A program made the translations under genes and the position numbers. A stretch of DNA of 64,000 bases from assembly GCF_003351345.1 (NCBI RefSeq), contig NZ_QQTO01000020.1, forward strand, positions 62,001-126,000. Reading direction: 5' to 3'. This DNA comes from Allobosea caraganae. Lineage in GTDB: Bacteria; Pseudomonadota; Alphaproteobacteria; Rhizobiales; Beijerinckiaceae. Positions 26,222 through 33,501 of this stretch are shown here, piece by piece. Under the pieces are notes generated by a model. That model was given only the letters and a program-made list of their open reading frames with translations. It ran no database searches and had not been told where the DNA came from. Each line of letters opens with the position of its first letter. Position 1 is the first letter of the stretch.

Positions 26222-27262
26222 GTGTCCACGATCAACGACGTCGCCAAGCTGGCGCGGGTTTCGATCTCGACGGTGTCCAACGTTCTCAACGGTCGAACCG
26301 ACCGGATGAGCAAGGACACGTTCGCCCGCGTCGAGAAGGCGGTCACCGAACTCGGCTATCAGCCCAACCGGGCCGCGCGCCAGCTCAAGACCGGGGAAGC
26401 CGCGCTGATCGGGCTGCTGGTGCCCTCGCTGACCAATCCCAGCTACGGAGCGCTGGCGCGCGAGATCGAGGCGGAGGCCTGGGAGAGCTACGGCTATCGT
26501 GTCGTCGTCAGCAACACCTATCGCGACCCGCGCAACGAGCGGGCCTTTCTCGACGACATGCTCACACATGGCATTCGCGGCGTCATCATCATCTCCTCGC
26601 TCGCCGACGAGAGCCATATCGAGGAGGTCGTCCGCAAGGGGCTCGTCGCGATCAGCTATGACAGCCAGAGCCAGCGCGCCATCCAGCCGGTCATCGACCA
26701 CGTCTCGTCGGACAACGTCGCCGGCGGGCGCATGGCGGCCGAGTACCTGATCGCCAACGGGCATCGCTGCATCGCGTTCCTGACGCCGCGCGGCTGGACC
26801 TTCAGCCGGGCCCAGAAGCGCGAGGGCTTCATGCTGGCGGTTGAGGCTGCAGGCATCCGCGGCGTCGTGATCGAAGGCGCGCTCTCCTCGAACTACGCCG
26901 ACGAGGAACTGGCCGAGCTCGGCATGAGCCTGGCCGGAACGGTGGCGGAGCATCCGGAGCGCCCGACCGGGATCGTCGCCATCAACGACATCATGGCCGT
27001 CGGCCTGCTCGCCGGGTTGCGCAAGCGCGGCATGGCGATCCCGGCCGACGTCTCGGTCGTGGGGATGGACGGCATCGCGCTTGGAACCTTCGTCGCCCCG
27101 CCGCTGACGAGCGTCCGGCTGGCGACCCGCGACATGGCGAAGGCGATGGTCGACCGCATCATGCTCCGCCTGAAGCGCGGCGAGACCACGCCCTCCACCT
27201 TCCGCTTCCCGCCGACGATGCTGGTGCGCGAATCCGTGGCCGGGCCGCCGCTGAGGCGATGA
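26222..27262 (+). CDS. LacI-family transcriptional regulator
   Basis: A 346-residue repressor. Residues 3-48 form the LacI helix-turn-helix (TINDVAKLARVSISTVSNVLNGR) and hinge helix (YQPNRAARQL, NRAARQL near 50). Residues 60-335 form the periplasmic-binding-protein-like sensor domain (IGLLVPSLTNPSYGALA, then VSVVGMDGIALGTFVAPPLTSV). The GTG start follows AAGGAG. It is the last gene of the TRAP operon, 99 bases after the dehydrogenase. A LacI-type palindrome sits on the operon promoter at 21714-21725. Confidence 0.95.
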   Translation: MSTINDVAKLARVSISTVSNVLNGRTDRMSKDTFARVEKAVTELGYQPNRAARQLKTGEAALIGLLVPSLTNPSYGALAREIEAEAWESYGYRVVVSNTYRDPRNERAFLDDMLTHGIRGVIIISSLADESHIEEVVRKGLVAISYDSQSQRAIQPVIDHVSSDNVAGGRMAAEYLIANGHRCIAFLTPRGWTFSRAQKREGFMLAVEAAGIRGVVIEGALSSNYADEELAELGMSLAGTVAEHPERPTGIVAINDIMAVGLLAGLRKRGMAIPADVSVVGMDGIALGTFVAPPLTSVRLATRDMAKAMVDRIMLRLKRGETTPSTFRFPPTMLVRESVAGPPLRR

Positions 27263-27294
27263 CTTCGGCTGCCGAATGTGCGCTCTTCATCCGC

Positions 27295-27528
27295 ATGACC
27301 TGGGTGTCCGCCAAGCGGCCGATCGACCTCTCGCTCGACGCCGAACTCGTCGAGAAGGCGCGTGCCAATGGCGTGAATGTTTCGGCGCTGACCGAAGAGG
27401 CCCTACGCGCGCGCATCGCCAAGGAAGAGGCGCAGCGCCGGCTTGAGGAGAACCGCGAGGCGATCGCGGTTCAAAACGGTTGGATAGTGGAGCGCGGGCT
27501 GTTTTCGGACGAGTTCAGGGGCTGGTGA
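27295..27528 (+). CDS. CcdA-like type II antitoxin
   Basis: A 77-residue antitoxin. The N-terminal half is a ribbon-helix-helix domain (PIDLSLDAELVEKARANGVNVSALTEEALR). The C-terminal half, with NREAIAVQNGWIVERGLFSDEFRGW, matches the toxin-binding tail of CcdA. An upstream ATG at 27259 overlaps the LacI gene end; 27295 gives the usual CcdA length. A normal ccdB toxin gene should follow, but the next gene (6 bases on) is unrelated to CcdB. The antitoxin is either orphaned or has a new partner. Confidence 0.85.
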   Translation: MTWVSAKRPIDLSLDAELVEKARANGVNVSALTEEALRARIAKEEAQRRLEENREAIAVQNGWIVERGLFSDEFRGW

Positions 27529-27534
27529 CGCTGG

Positions 27535-27972
27535 ATGGCTCGGTACGAGGCGCTGAGCGACGAGAGAAAGGCTTCTATTCTCGAAAGCCTCATGGGCGTC
27601 GGCCCATCCAAGCCGATAGGTTATCTTCCACTTTGCACCATTCAGGATGTTCTGGGTGTACCAGTCGCCGTTCTTCTAAAGCAGATGATGCCGCGGGGCA
27701 TTCTTGCGTTGAAGCTAAATTCGAAAGAGTGCTGCATCAAGAGCGGCGCGCTCTACTTCTATGATCCAGTTGCCCTGGAGAATCTCCTCCGGGTAGCGTC
27801 AGATGACCTTAAGCAATGTGGCTGGCCAAGAACCCCTGCCGAATTTGTCAAGCATATCGCGGCCAATTGGTATGAATCAGATCATCCGCTGATCGGATTG
27901 ATCAGAATGGCCTTCGGGGAAGACAAAAATGGTCGGGACGAGCCCGGCCATTTCAAGTCAGCTAATCGCTAA
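27535..27972 (+). CDS. protein of unknown function, gene coupled to a ccdA-like antitoxin gene
   Basis: 145 residues, not recognised. It is soluble, with no signal or membrane segment. N-terminus MARYEALSDERKASILESL is helical. The middle has a hydrophobic beta-like stretch (PIGYLPLCTIQDVLGVPVAVLL) and a CC pair. The C-terminal third, with WPRTPAEFVKHIAANWYESDHPLIGLIRMAFGED, looks like a compact helical module. It lacks CcdB features (CcdB is about 100 residues). The DNA is visibly less GC-rich than its neighbours, which suggests acquisition. It begins 6 bases after the antitoxin stop, and ends 4 bases from the nrdJ stop on the other strand. It may be a toxin or simply a cargo gene; undecided. 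Confidence 0.75.
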   Translation: MARYEALSDERKASILESLMGVGPSKPIGYLPLCTIQDVLGVPVAVLLKQMMPRGILALKLNSKECCIKSGALYFYDPVALENLLRVASDDLKQCGWPRTPAEFVKHIAANWYESDHPLIGLIRMAFGEDKNGRDEPGHFKSANR

Positions 27973-27976
27973 GGCC

Positions 27977-30900
27977 TCAAGAACAGCCCGTCGTGCTTCC
28001 ACACGTATTGCACTTCAAGCACGTGCCATTCCGCACCAGCGTGAAGTTCCCGCACTCGCCGCACGAGTCCCCGACATAGCCCTTCATGATCGCCTCGGCC
28101 CGGCGCTCCGATGCGCTCGGCTGGGCTGCCGGGGCCGCGAAGCCGAGCTTGGCCATGTCGGCCTCGCCATAGGCCTGCTCCGGCTCCTGCTTCAGCGCGG
28201 TGGCGCCGGCGGTGGCGTAGCCATGGGCGGGCGTCGCCTGGCGCGGGGCGTCCTGCGCCACGCCGCCGGGGATCAGCATCAGCTTGTCGGCACGCGAGCG
28301 GACCAGGCCCTTCGAGATCGAGGACTGCGCCGGTGTCGCGGTGGCCGCCTGGCCTTGGCCGTCGCCGCCGCCGAGGCCGATATTGCCGACCTCGCTCGGG
28401 TCGACATGGGCGAGTTCGTAGCGGCCGAGATAGGAAATCGCCAGCTCGCGGAAGACGTAATCGAGGATCGAGGTCGCGTTCTTGATCGAGTCGTTGCCCT
28501 GGACGAAGCCCGCCGGCTCGAAGCGGGTGAAGGTGAAGGCGTCGACATACTCCTCCAGCGGCACGCCGTATTGCAGGCCGAGCGAGACCGAGATGGCGAA
28601 GTTGTTGATCAGCGCCCGCAGCGCCGAGCCTTCCTTGTTCATGTCGAGGAAGATCTCGCCGAGGCGGCCGTCATCATACTCGCCAGTGCGCAGGAAGAGC
28701 GTGTGGCCGCCGATCTTGGCCTTCTGGGTATAGCCCTTGCGGCGGGTCGGCAGCTTCTCCTGCTCGCGGTTGCGCTCGACGCGCTCGACGATGCGCTCGA
28801 CGATCTTCTCGGCGACCTGGGTGGCGCGCGCCGCCAGCGGCTGCTGGTAGAGCGTGTCGATGACGTCGTCGGCGTCGTCATCCTCGTCGGCGATCAAGGC
28901 CGAGTTCAGCGGCTGCGACAGCTTCGAGCCGTCGCGGTAGAGGGCGTTCGCCTTCAGCGCCAGCTTCCAGGAGAGCAGGTAGGCGCTCTTGCAATCCTCG
29001 ACGGTGGCGTCGTTGGGCATGTTGATGGTCTTGGAGATCGCGCCCGAGATGAAGGGCTGGGCCGCCGCCATCATGCGGATATGGCTCTCGACCGAGAGGT
29101 AGCGCTTGCCGATGCGGCCGCAAGGGTTGGCGCAGTCGAAGACGTTGTAGTGCTCGAGCTTGAGGTGCGGGGCGCCCTCTAGCGTCATCGCGCCGCAGAC
29201 ATGGACGTTGGCCGCGTCGATCTCGGCGCGCGAGAAGCCGAGGAAGGGCAGCAGCTCGAACGACATGTCGGCGAGCTTCTCGGCCGGGACCTTGAGCTCG
29301 TTGACGAGGAAGTCCTCGCCCAGCGTCCACTTGTTGAAGACGAACTTGATGTCGAAGGCGGCCTTGAGGTCCTTCTCGACCGCGTCGATCTTGGCCTGGC
29401 TGAAGCCCTTGGCCCGGAGCGAGCCGTGGTTGACACCCGGCGCCTGCGCCAGCGTGCCATGGCCGACGGCATAGGCCTCGATCTCGGCGAGCTCCGCCTC
29501 GCGGTAACCCAGCGCGCGGAGCGCATCCGGCACGGCGCCGTTGATGATCTTGAAGTAGCCGCCGCCGGCGAGCTTCTTGAACTTCACCAAGGCGAAGTCG
29601 GGTTCGATGCCGGTGGTGTCGCAATCCATGACGAGGCCGATCGTGCCGGTCGGCGCGATCACGGTCGACTGGGCGTTGCGGTAGCCATGCTTCTCGCCGA
29701 GCGCGAGCGCATTGTCCCAGGCCGCCTTGGCACGCTCGGAGAGGAGCGCGCTGGAGCCGCCGAGCTTGGCCAGCGTGGCGTGGTCGAGCGGCACCGGCGC
29801 GACCTTGAGGCCCTCATAGCCCTCGGCCTTGCCATGGGCGGCGATGCGATGATTGCGGATGACGCGCAGCATGTGGCTGGCGTTCTTCTTGTAGGACGGG
29901 AAGGGGCCGAGCTCGCCCGCCATCTCGGCCGAGGTGGCGTAGGACACGCCGGTCATGATCGCGGTCAGCGCGCCGGCTAGCGCCCGGCCCTCGTCGGAAT
30001 CGTAGCCGAGGCCCATGGTCATCAGCAGGCCGCCGATATTGGCGTAGCCGAGGCCCAGCGTGCGGAACTCGTAGGAGAGCTCGGCGATCTCCTTCGACGG
30101 GAACTGCGCCATCGTCACGGAGATCTCGAGCACGACGGTCCAGAGCCGGCACAGATGTTCGTAAGCCGCGACATCGAAGGCCTTGGTGTCGCGGTCGTAG
30201 AACTGCAGCAGGTTGGCCGAGGCCAGGTTGCAGGCGGTGTCGTCGAGGAACATGTACTCGGAGCACGGATTGGACGCCCGGATGCGGCCCGAGGCCGGGC
30301 AGGTGTGCCAGTCGTTCATCGTCGAGTTGAAGTGCAGGCCGGGATCGGCCGAGGCCCAGGCGGCGTAGCCGATCTTCTCCCAGAGGTCGCGGGCCTTCAG
30401 CGTCTTGGTGACCTTGCCGGTGGTGCGGGCGATGAGGTTCCAGTCGCTATCGGTCTCGACGGCACGCAGGAAATCGTCGGTCAGCGAGACCGAGTTGTTC
30501 GAGTTCTGGCCGGAGACGGTGAGGTAGGCCTCAGAATCCCAGTCGGTGTCGTAGGTGTCGAAGGAAATGTCGGTATAGCCCTGGCGGGCGAACTGGATGA
30601 CGCGCTTGATGTAGTTGTCCGGCACCGCCGACTTGCGGGCGAGCTTGATCTCGCGCTTCAGGGCCGGGTTCTTCTCCGGATCGAAGCAGGCATCGCCATC
30701 GGCCTCGCAGTTCACGCAGGCCTTCATCACGGCCGTCATGTGCTTGCGGACGATCTTGGAGCCGGCGACGAGGGCGGCGACCTTCTGCTCCTCCTTCACC
30801 TTCCAGTCGATATAGGTCTCGATATCGGGATGGTCGGCATCGACCACGACCATCTTGGCGGCGCGGCGCGTGGTGCCGCCCGACTTGATCGCGCCCGCGG

Positions 30901-31690
30901 CGCGGTCGCCGATCTTGAGGAAGGACATCAGGCCGGACGAGCGGCCGCCGCCGGCGAGCCTCTCGCCTTCGCCGCGCAGCATCGAGAAGTTCGAGCCGGT
31001 GCCGGAGCCGTATTTGAACAGGCGGGCTTCGCGGACCCAGAGGTCCATGATGCCGCCCTCGTTGACGAGGTCGTCCTGCACGCCCTGGATGAAGCAGGCA
31101 TGCGGTTGCGGGTGCTCGTAACTCGACTTCGACTTGGTGAGCTTGCCGGTCTTGAAGTCGACGTAGAAATGGCCTTGGCTCGGGCCGTCGATGCCATAGG
31201 CCCAGTGCAGGCCGGTGTTGAACCATTGCGGCGAATTCGGCGCGACCATCTGGCTGGCGAGCATGAAGCGCAACTCGTCATGGAAGGCGGCGGCGTCCTC
31301 TTCCGAGGTGAAATAGCCGCCCTTCCAGCCCCAATAGGTCCAGCAGCCGGCGAGCCGGTCGAAGACCTGCTTGGAGGAGATCTCGGAGCCGTAGCGCTCA
31401 CCCTCGGGGAGCTTGGCCAGCGCCGCCTCGTCGGGGGCCGAACGCCAGAGGAAGGAGGGAACGTCGTTCTCCTCGACCTTCTTCAGCGCCGCCGGGACGC
31501 CGGCCTTGCGGAAATACTTCTGCGCCAGCACGTCGCTGGCGACCTGCGACCAGGCGTCGGGAACCTCGATGCCTTCGAGACGGAACACGATCGAGCCGTC
31601 GGGATTGCGGATCTCGCTGACGGCCGAGCGGAAGGGGATCGCCTGATAGGGCGAGGCTCCGGCAGAGGTATAGCGGCGCTCGATGCGCAT
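27977..31690 (-). CDS. nrdJ: vitamin B12-dependent ribonucleoside-diphosphate reductase (class II)
   Basis: Makes deoxyribonucleotides with adenosylcobalamin, oxygen-independent. About 1237 residues, the usual long alphaproteobacterial form. Landmarks: [122 protein letters not shown], and a C-terminal cysteine-rich tail (SCGECG ... [13 protein letters not shown]) that receives electrons. I place the start at ATG 31690 (MRIERRYTS), after GGGGACG; a TTG five codons earlier is possible. It faces the unknown low-GC gene at its 3' end. Confidence 0.96.
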
Positions 31691-32518
31691 AATGATCGTC
31701 CCCAATGCATGCCGCGGGCTTTGATGCCCCGCGCGGCCGGTTGCTCACCGGCTCCAATGTCAGCCCAACTCGGTTTGATGCCCCTGGATCCCGCGGCGGT
31801 GTAGTCCCGCCGTCGCTATCCTGATGCGGCCAGCAGGACCGCACGTCGCCATTCGCTGCCGCCGTGATGGCGTGCCGCGCGGTGAACGTCTCGACCCCTC
31901 TGGGAACTCTTTTGCGGGTGTCGAAGGCGTCTCCGCCAGCCGTCACGCGACCGTCAAAAACTAGTCCCGATTGGGCAGCGGCGTCAAGGATTAGTGTGCT
32001 GCAATCCCTGTGGACACGACATCTTGTAGGGAGATGTGAGTTCCGGGGATAAGTTTCAAGGCCCCAGCTAAGCCTTCGGAATCACGGGAAGAATCGGCTC
32101 GGCTCCGGGAGAGTGAGCGATCCTGGCCGATGGGAAAAGACTAAAATTCGCGGCATCTATGCTTAGCCGGTGGTTAATCCGACTGATCGGGAGCGGCGAA
32201 TGCAAGCTCGATCTGCGCCAACAGGGCCAAGTCCCTGGAGACAGAGGCTCTTCGTTGGATCGGCCCGTGTGCCGGCGCAGGTTTGATCGTGGTCGAATCA
32301 TGGCACGGTGGCGTCAGCTGCAGGGCGAGGGCGTCCGCGCAGGCGGCGCGCGGCGACGAATCCTCTCGATCGCTCGGCCGATTGCAGGGCCGACGCAAAC
32401 TGCGTGCTCGCGGCAGCGCCAGGCCGCTTCAGAACGTCGCCGATGCGCCCGGCGGGCTGGACAGGGGCGGGCGCTGCCGCCATAAGTCGGGCAAGCCCGA
32501 CCGACGCGGACGAGAGCC
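31691..32518. other. 828-base gap between nrdJ and the NDUFA12 gene: nrdJ leader and divergent promoter region
   Basis: No convincing gene is present. A weak promoter candidate for nrdJ on the minus strand is TTGACG (plus positions 31982-31987) with CTAGTT 17 bases on (31959-31964). The leader holds two direct copies of TTTGATGCCCC, at 31720-31730 and 31774-31784. I looked for a cobalamin riboswitch and for NrdR boxes and saw neither. The part from 32160 to 32518, before the NDUFA12 gene, is GC-rich with small open frames that lack family resemblance or ribosome sites. Confidence 0.6.
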
Positions 32519-32938: not shown

Positions 32939-33253
32939 CTATTTCTTGAAGAGCCAGGCGGCATAGTCGCGCGCGCTGTGAAGCACGCGGACGACTTCAA
33001 CATGATCTTCGCCGATCCGGTAGAAGATCAGGTAGTCGCCGTGAGCGCGTCTGCGAATTTGTCGCCCCTTGCTCTGAGGCATGACCGGCCATGCGAGAGG
33101 CCGCTCGCCAAGACCGAGGCATTTCCGCTCCAACTCATCGACGAAGCTATCGGCGCGGGCAGGGGTGTCCTTGGCGATATGGCGGCCGATGCCGATAAGA
33201 TCGGCCTTGGCAGCGTCCGAGATGATGACGGTCAACGAGCCTTTCGGGCTCAT
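32939..33253 (-). CDS. parE: RelE/ParE-family toxin
   Basis: A 104-residue toxin of a type II toxin-antitoxin pair. ParE-fold markers: VIISDAAKADLIGIGRHIAKDTPARADSFVDELERKC, then RRRAHGDYLIFYRIGEDHVEVVRVLHSARDY with the C-terminal HSARD block. ParE toxins usually poison DNA gyrase. The ATG overlaps the antitoxin stop by four bases (ATGA), so the antitoxin is made first. It converges on the NDUFA12 gene with 9 bases between. Confidence 0.92.
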   Translation of the reverse strand: MSPKGSLTVIISDAAKADLIGIGRHIAKDTPARADSFVDELERKCLGLGERPLAWPVMPQSKGRQIRRRAHGDYLIFYRIGEDHVEVVRVLHSARDYAAWLFKK

Positions 33254-33501
33254 TTAGCGGCGATGGCGCGGCGAATGTCCTGGAAGGCCTGATCTAGTGG
33301 CGAGGAGCGGCCAGCGTCGAGATCGGCAATGCCGATGTCGAGCGCTTCATTGAGTTCCTGGAGCTTCTTCGCCTTGTAGCGTTGGCGCAGTGCCTCATGC
33401 ACGATATCCGTGCCGGAGGCGTAGGCACCTTGTTCGAGCTCGGCGCGGACCAGCGTCGCCAGTTCGGCAGGCAAGGTGATGGTCATCTCTCCAGACTTCA
33501 T
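33250..33501 (-). CDS. parD: ParD-family antitoxin
   Basis: An 83-residue ribbon-helix-helix antitoxin. The N-terminus MTITLPAELATLVRAELEQGAYASGTDIVHEALRQ is the DNA-binding and dimer part. The C-terminal helix (KLQELNEALDIGIADLDAGRS) binds the toxin. First gene of the pair. A promoter with a CTATAT -10 on the minus strand (33529-33534) lies inside a dyad, as expected for self-regulation. Confidence 0.92.
   Translation of the reverse strand: MKSGEMTITLPAELATLVRAELEQGAYASGTDIVHEALRQRYKAKKLQELNEALDIGIADLDAGRSSPLDQAFQDIRRAIAAK

What the first reader, a model, noticed from the sequence alone, without database searches (positions are those of the whole stretch)
27295..27972. CcdA-like antitoxin paired with a gene that is not ccdB
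The antitoxin tail (GLFSDEFRGW) is CcdA-like. The next gene starts 6 bases on, as a toxin gene would, but encodes 145 residues with no CcdB resemblance and lower GC. It may be a new toxin type captured by a CcdA-like antitoxin, or a passenger that replaced ccdB. This is the best candidate here for an undescribed pair.
Basis: partly seen in the sequence, partly recalled or inferred. Interest (0 to 1): 0.6.

Follow-up and report, generated by a model that had tools for sequence, protein, structure and literature searches.

The report
Orphan CcdA antitoxin with passenger gene
In this bacterium an old antitoxin gene has lost its usual toxin partner, and an unnamed wandering gene, with relatives on plasmids, in phages and beside jumping-gene remnants, now sits in the toxin's place; this looks more like a decayed pair with a passenger than a new poison-antidote pair.

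Summary
A CcdA antitoxin gene (27295-27528 +, Pfam CcdA E 7.5e-23) is followed 6 bases on by a 145-codon gene ("X", 27535-27972 +) with no CcdB similarity, GC 52.5 % and unusual codons. "New toxin captured by CcdA" is not favoured; "passenger that replaced ccdB" is. In the genus (Bosea by record titles) 7 of 67 genomes hold CcdA: three have intact CcdB behind it, one a frame-shifted CcdB, two are relics, and the window has X. In one genome ccdAB lies in the same orientation at the same place, beside nrdJ. X is a thinly scattered family without a fixed partner: 1 of 9 intact genus copies lies directly behind ccdA, 4 of 8 X-bearing genus genomes have no CcdA, and of 13 X-bearing genomes or records outside it 12 have none. 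Three copies lie directly behind IS66 transposase tails; others are on plasmids and in Brevundimonas phages. The window's CcdA has Arg where the other four have Trp44. X matches no named family; its confident model has no significant fold match. Most likely: a decayed ccd locus with an orphan CcdA and a mobile passenger of unknown function, perhaps winged-helix-like. A real CcdA-X pair is not excluded (about 8 %).

The parts
27295..27528 (+). ccdA-like antitoxin gene, 77 aa, intact frame; Arg at the position of F-plasmid CcdA Trp44
   Evidence: PF07362 E 7.5e-23 (on the ORF from 27259); alignment to four CcdA of the genus and to PDB 2adl
27535..27972 (+). gene X, 145 aa, family without a name; about the first 130 residues are the conserved part
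27529..27534 (+). 6-base gap between ccdA stop and X start; same length as the ccdA-ccdB gap in G004 (4 in G007, G014, G015)
27259..27294 (+). homologue of the region ahead of ccdA in relatives; -35-like ATGACT (27259-27264) kept, -10-like CATAAT of G014 reads CGCTCT here (27281-27286)
   Evidence: by eye on alignment A5, positions checked; no sigma-70-like site found by the scan
27927..27953 (.). hairpin 23 bases past the nrdJ stop, T-rich tail on the nrdJ strand; read as coding by the end of X
   Evidence: z -4.98 on the + strand, only -1.78 on the nrdJ strand; not listed by the terminator scan
27977..31705 (-). nrdJ, class II (B12) ribonucleotide reductase, convergent neighbour that marks the locus in the genus
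   Evidence: PF02867, PF08471; its C-terminal part found in 63 of 67 genus genomes
26222..27262 (+). LacI-family regulator; its stop codon overlaps the -35-like element ahead of ccdA
   Evidence: PF00356, PF13377; sequence

Best explanation
This is a decayed ccdAB locus. Shown: a ccdA beside nrdJ is followed by X instead of ccdB; in relatives the same kind of ccdA is followed by ccdB, once at the same place; X is a scattered family found in several unrelated neighbourhoods, mostly without ccdA, and the window's copy has foreign base composition. Inferred: X, a mobile passenger, entered next to the nrdJ terminator and ccdB was lost, so that X now holds the second place of the operon, transcribed by read-through from lacI or from a weakened ccd promoter and translated by coupling to ccdA. 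CcdA stays as an orphan antitoxin/repressor that has begun to lose CcdB binding (Trp44 to Arg). X itself, on its predicted order of elements (helix-strand-helix-helix-strand-loop-strand, then helices), is most likely a small winged-helix-like accessory protein carried by phages and transposon-like elements; that last step is a guess (about 0.35).
For: CcdB (PF01845, over cut-off) behind ccdA in G004, G007, G014; in G007 the pair lies beside nrdJ in the window's orientation. G015: ccdB departs from the family after about residue 62 (frame shift). No CcdB in the window's genome at E 0.1. X in 8 of 67 genus genomes, 9 intact loci, 1 directly behind ccdA; G001, G021, G045, G048 carry X and no CcdA at E 0.001. 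Of 13 X-bearing genomes or records outside the genus 12 have no CcdA at E 0.01; the other (G841) has two, on contigs other than that of X. X directly behind IS66 TnpC tails in L042, L045 and pRL11 (PF13817 E 1.5e-7, 7e-10, 3.4e-5, the last below cut-off). X on Rhizobium and Brevibacillus plasmids and in 5 Brevundimonas phages. GC and codon use of the window's X. Trp44 position Arg in the window, Trp in the other four CcdAs; the double mutant F65G/W44L of F CcdA is described as impaired in CcdB binding (PMC9555053, passages). -10-like element not kept (by eye).
Against: ccdA is not frame-broken and its differences from relatives are mostly at third codon positions (9/8/26 of 71 codons against G015), so it is or was until recently under selection. 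The toxin-like spacing is kept. In G058 a ccdA relic closest to that of G014 (115 of 127 bases; 86 of 127 to the window's) is fused to an X-like tail that runs through the same hairpin, so ccdA and X met in two genomes with different ccdA lineages; in G004 X lies beside a complete ccdAB, convergent. These could hint at a functional tie. No certain ccdB remnant or insertion border was found (undecided). The F65 equivalent of CcdA is kept, and single loss of Trp44 was not shown to abolish binding in the passages I saw.
Confidence: 0.72

Rival explanations
1. A new toxin-antitoxin pair: X is a toxin (or other effector) and this CcdA has changed its tail, including Trp44 to Arg, to bind X instead of CcdB.
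For: Operon layout with toxin-like spacing; ccdA intact and still constrained; a second genome with a ccdA relic fused to an X-like tail at the same place.
Against: 8 of 9 intact genus X genes have no ccdA directly upstream and four X-bearing genus genomes have no CcdA at E 0.001; 12 of 13 X-bearing genomes or records outside the genus have none at E 0.01, and the 13th not on the contig of X. The CcdA tail GLFSDEFRGW is shared with CcdAs that have CcdB.
Confidence: 0.08
2. X is an immunity-type protein of polymorphic toxin systems, carried as an orphan in variable loci.
For: In L044 X overlaps by 4 bases the end of an ORF with RHS-like sequence (RHS by eye); 13 of 16 aligned members have a net negative charge, though the window's copy is +1; the G058 copy L003 is next to a DUF7336-like gene (E 1.9e-4, below cut-off).
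Against: One such locus only; that ORF end had no Pfam hit, and of nine neighbouring proteins from six loci scanned none matched an immunity family (one of the nine, from L045, was in the wrong frame).
Confidence: 0.1
3. X and ccdA are neighbours by chance: X inserted beside nrdJ downstream of an already decayed ccd relic and has its own expression.
For: Copies of X elsewhere share flanking sequence (motif on both sides in G021); no sigma-70-like promoter found at ccdA.
Against: 6-base gap and same strand fit coupling and leave no room for a promoter between the genes; ccdA is not frame-broken.
Confidence: 0.1

Closest known systems
ccdAB type II toxin-antitoxin module
   Same: ccdA by Pfam with the CcdB-binding tail motif; order and spacing; three intact ccdAB relatives in the genus
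   Different: no CcdB; second gene without CcdB similarity; Trp44 position changed; -10-like element not kept
Orphan antitoxins / anti-addiction CcdA (reviewed in PMC7354431, passages seen)
   Same: CcdA without CcdB in the genome; the review lists remnants, regulators of other pairs and anti-addiction as proposed roles
   Different: an unrelated gene sits in the toxin's place; a CcdB-contact residue is altered, which weakens the anti-addiction reading
IS66-family transposase gene tnpC with a gene behind it
   Same: X directly behind TnpC tails in L042, L045 and pRL11, with overlapping stop/start in L042 and L045
   Different: no IS66 tail at the window locus (sequence read); only tails, no complete IS66 element, were seen

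Membership tests
CcdAB toxin-antitoxin | CcdA antitoxin (PF07362) | tested here: met
   E 7.5e-23, above cut-off
CcdAB toxin-antitoxin | CcdB toxin (PF01845) as partner | tested here: not met
   no Pfam hit for X; no CcdB in the genome at E 0.1
CcdAB toxin-antitoxin | Trp at position 44 of CcdA (part of a double mutant impaired in CcdB binding, PMC9555053) | tested here: not met
   Arg in window, Trp in 4 of 4 other CcdA of the genus
CcdAB toxin-antitoxin | autoregulated promoter ahead of ccdA | tested here: inconclusive
   -35-like kept, -10-like not (by eye); scan finds none
type II toxin-antitoxin pair (ccdA-X) | toxin arrests growth and antitoxin neutralises it | not testable with these tools
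   needs bench work
type II toxin-antitoxin pair (ccdA-X) | two genes kept together across genomes | tested here: not met
   1 of 9 intact genus loci directly behind ccdA; one further fused relic; outside the genus 0 of 13 with CcdA beside X
CcdB/MazF fold | same fold as CcdB | tested here: inconclusive
   model has three strands and seven helices; a family missing from the lists is not excluded, by the tool's own note
winged-helix protein | H-E-H-H-E-loop-E order and a significant fold match | tested here: inconclusive
   order fits; best PDB match E 0.12; best second-look match 2guk Z 5.9, rmsd 3.8, 96 aligned
IS66 passenger gene | directly behind IS66 tnpC | tested here: not met
   not at the window locus (by eye); met in 3 other loci
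polymorphic-toxin immunity protein | directly behind a toxin tip, or an immunity family by profile | tested here: inconclusive
   one RHS-like locus; no family hit for X

The most novel reading that the evidence does not exclude
X is a member of a new effector family that a CcdA antitoxin has been re-tuned to control (Trp44 to Arg as part of the re-tuning), that is, toxin exchange behind a kept antitoxin.
Probability: 0.08. Interest if true: 0.65.

Novelty: new variant of a known kind. Interest (0 to 1): 0.3.

Why it matters
It shows a toxin gene replaced in place by an unrelated gene while the antitoxin survives, with other states in sister genomes (intact, frame-shifted, replaced, fused relic). 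Such loci are easily mis-called as new toxin-antitoxin pairs by neighbourhood rules. It also points to an unnamed protein family shared by Bosea, Rhizobium and Brevibacillus plasmids, IS66 surroundings and Brevundimonas phages of about 350 kb, for which a confident structure model exists but no function.

Tried and rejected
Relic of ccdB at the start of X: codons 2-6 of X match the ccdB start of G015 in 11 of 15 bases (best of four ccdB; random-codon null 0.0007), but the X relative L042 matches 9 of 15 there, 11 of 18 over codons 2-7 (G015 12) and 13 of 21 over codons 2-8 (G015 12); a ccdB/X fusion is undecided. Named families over 16 X members: Pfam and NCBIfam only stray single-member hits (best E 0.038 and 0.093); PHROGs one member at E 0.0028 and two at 0.07 at best, no function; PADLOC one member at E 0.0048 to '2TM'. 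Solved relatives by sequence: a designed protein (E 0.0019) and UidR (E 0.052), taken as chance. Fold: no match at E 0.001 in PDB or viral libraries. Flank motif: GCTTNGGGTCGNNAGCSGNC gave 3 exact matches in 5 genomes, all beside X; a looser form gave 11 exact matches in 67 genomes, 4 beside X, but with one mismatch allowed 136 matches against 123 of the reversed control (my sums), so only weak support for a mobile cassette. Same DNA on plasmids: none. Loci not viewed: G254 (weak match with stops), three of the five phages, one of the three Rhizobium plasmids. Papers: searches with IS66 and passenger gene, ccdA and orphan antitoxin, ccdA/ccdB with hybrid, antitoxin families and parE, with Trp44 (no paper), with Bosea, and with tryptophan and rejuvenation showed no description of this pair in the listings; I saw passages of PMC7354431, PMC8198452, PMC8522696 and PMC9555053 only.

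Full report
What is there. At 27295-27528 (+) lies a 77-codon gene that Pfam calls CcdA (E 7.5e-23). Its stop is followed by 6 bases and a 145-codon gene, here X (27535-27972 +). X has no Pfam or NCBIfam match at E up to 10. Its GC is 52.5 %, against 63.7 % for the ccdA ORF and 67.3 % for the window; its codon-adaptation value is 0.272 against 0.577-0.807 for five other genes of the window. Downstream and convergent is nrdJ; upstream is a LacI-type regulator.

Which organism. Contigs of equal length in a named collection carry the titles Bosea sp. Tri-44 (G007), CS1GBMeth4 (G058), LC85 (G045) and B. psychrotolerans (G001); the contigs of G021 and G004 are titled as Hyphomicrobiales and Beijerinckiaceae MAGs. 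I therefore call the genus Bosea; the window itself is unnamed.

Where ccdA comes from. CcdA is found in 7 of 67 genomes of the genus. G004, G007 and G014 have an intact ccdB 6, 4 and 4 bases behind it (PF01845 E 2.2e-23, 5.5e-26 and 5.6e-28). In G007 the pair lies beside nrdJ in the same orientation as here, 82 bases from it. In G015 it lies near nrdJ with one gene between, and ccdB departs from the family after about residue 62. In G105 a ccdA relic with two stops lies near nrdJ. The window's genome has no CcdB at E 0.1. So the usual partner at this kind of locus is CcdB.

What happened to this CcdA. Compared with four CcdAs of the genus it has 6 private changes among 47 sites invariant in the others; the others have 1 to 4 of 42 to 45. 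One is Arg for the Trp that aligns with Trp44 of F-plasmid CcdA. A W44L/F65G double mutant is described as impaired in CcdB binding (PMC9555053, passages); the F65 equivalent is kept here. Ahead of the gene the -35-like element of relatives is kept and the -10-like CATAAT of G014 reads CGCTCT (by eye; the scan finds no promoter). Against full decay: the frame is open and differences are mostly at third codon positions.

What X is. X occurs in 8 of 67 genus genomes, the window's included, at 9 intact loci; the eight other copies are 42-46 % identical to it. Only the window's copy lies directly behind ccdA; G004's lies beside a complete ccdAB, convergent; around the other seven I saw no ccdA, and G001, G021, G045 and G048 have none at E 0.001. 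In wider draws X is rare: 6 of 397 genomes of the order, counting the window's, G058 and one weak match, and 2 of 385 of the class, counting the window's. One pattern scan of 84,980 species genomes gave 11 loci, a lower bound, 7 of them the genus copies again. Further copies lie on three Rhizobium plasmids (in pRL11 of R. johnstonii 3841 the frame is broken), on a Brevibacillus plasmid, in five Brevundimonas phages, and at the front of a 328-codon gene of a viral contig. Three lie directly behind IS66 TnpC tails: L042, L045, pRL11 (PF13817 E 1.5e-7, 7e-10 and 3.4e-5, the last below cut-off). One overlaps the end of an RHS-like ORF. Of 13 X-bearing genomes or records outside the genus, 12 have no CcdA at E 0.01; G841, the RHS case, has two, on other contigs than X. 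Some of these records are fragments.

Structure. With 12 rows the model has pLDDT 88.3 and pTM 0.81; residues 1-3 and 133-145 are below 50. The order helix, strand, two helices, strand, loop, strand is that of a winged helix (recalled), but no PDB or viral match reaches E 0.001; the best second-look match is 2guk at Z 5.9, rmsd 3.8, over 96 residues, which by the tool's note may be only a common arrangement. 13 of 16 members are net acidic, which does not favour plain DNA binding.

A shared junction. The end of X runs through a hairpin 23 bases beyond the nrdJ stop. In G058 the same place holds a ccdA relic, closest to that of G014 (115 of 127 bases, against 97 for G007 and 86 for the window), fused to a short tail that matches X (26 residues, 68 %, E 7.1e-4) and runs through the same hairpin. 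Part of that match is hairpin sequence; the rest carries the family motif. So X probably entered beside nrdJ before these lineages parted or was exchanged between them, and ccdB was lost around it. That the two ccdAs differ shows that recombination was involved or that ccdA and X met twice.

Verdict. The locus looks like a toxin-antitoxin pair because X holds the place of ccdB. The comparison says decayed ccd locus with a mobile passenger. What X does is unknown; a winged-helix-like accessory protein is the best guess. A true CcdA-X pair remains possible and is cheap to test.

Noticed in passing
window 32939-33501 (-): A second toxin-antitoxin-like pair: a ParE toxin gene (PF05016 E 2.2e-19) behind a small gene that looks like ParD by eye but had no Pfam hit at E 0.01.
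   Followed up: partly
L032 38-1099 and about 1973-2200 (G007): In G007 the ccdAB beside nrdJ has on its far side a second short stretch coding an nrdJ fragment, as if the insertion came with a partial duplication of nrdJ (by eye).
   Followed up: no
L002, L003, L004, L023, flanks of X: X copies in G007, G058 and G021 carry similar ~30-base motifs before the start and near the stop; 4 of 11 exact matches in 67 genomes lie beside X, but one-mismatch matches are hardly above control.
   Followed up: partly
L034 1794-2471 (-) (G105): A Peptidase_M78/IrrE-like gene (E 2.9e-8) lies between a ccdA relic and nrdJ.
   Followed up: no
L055 6001-6354: The X gene of Rhizobium plasmid pRL11 departs from the family sequence halfway (frame broken); it is annotated as a hypothetical protein.
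   Followed up: no
L114, L115 (G841): The Rhodopila-type genome with the RHS-linked X has two CcdA genes over cut-off on other contigs.
   Followed up: no
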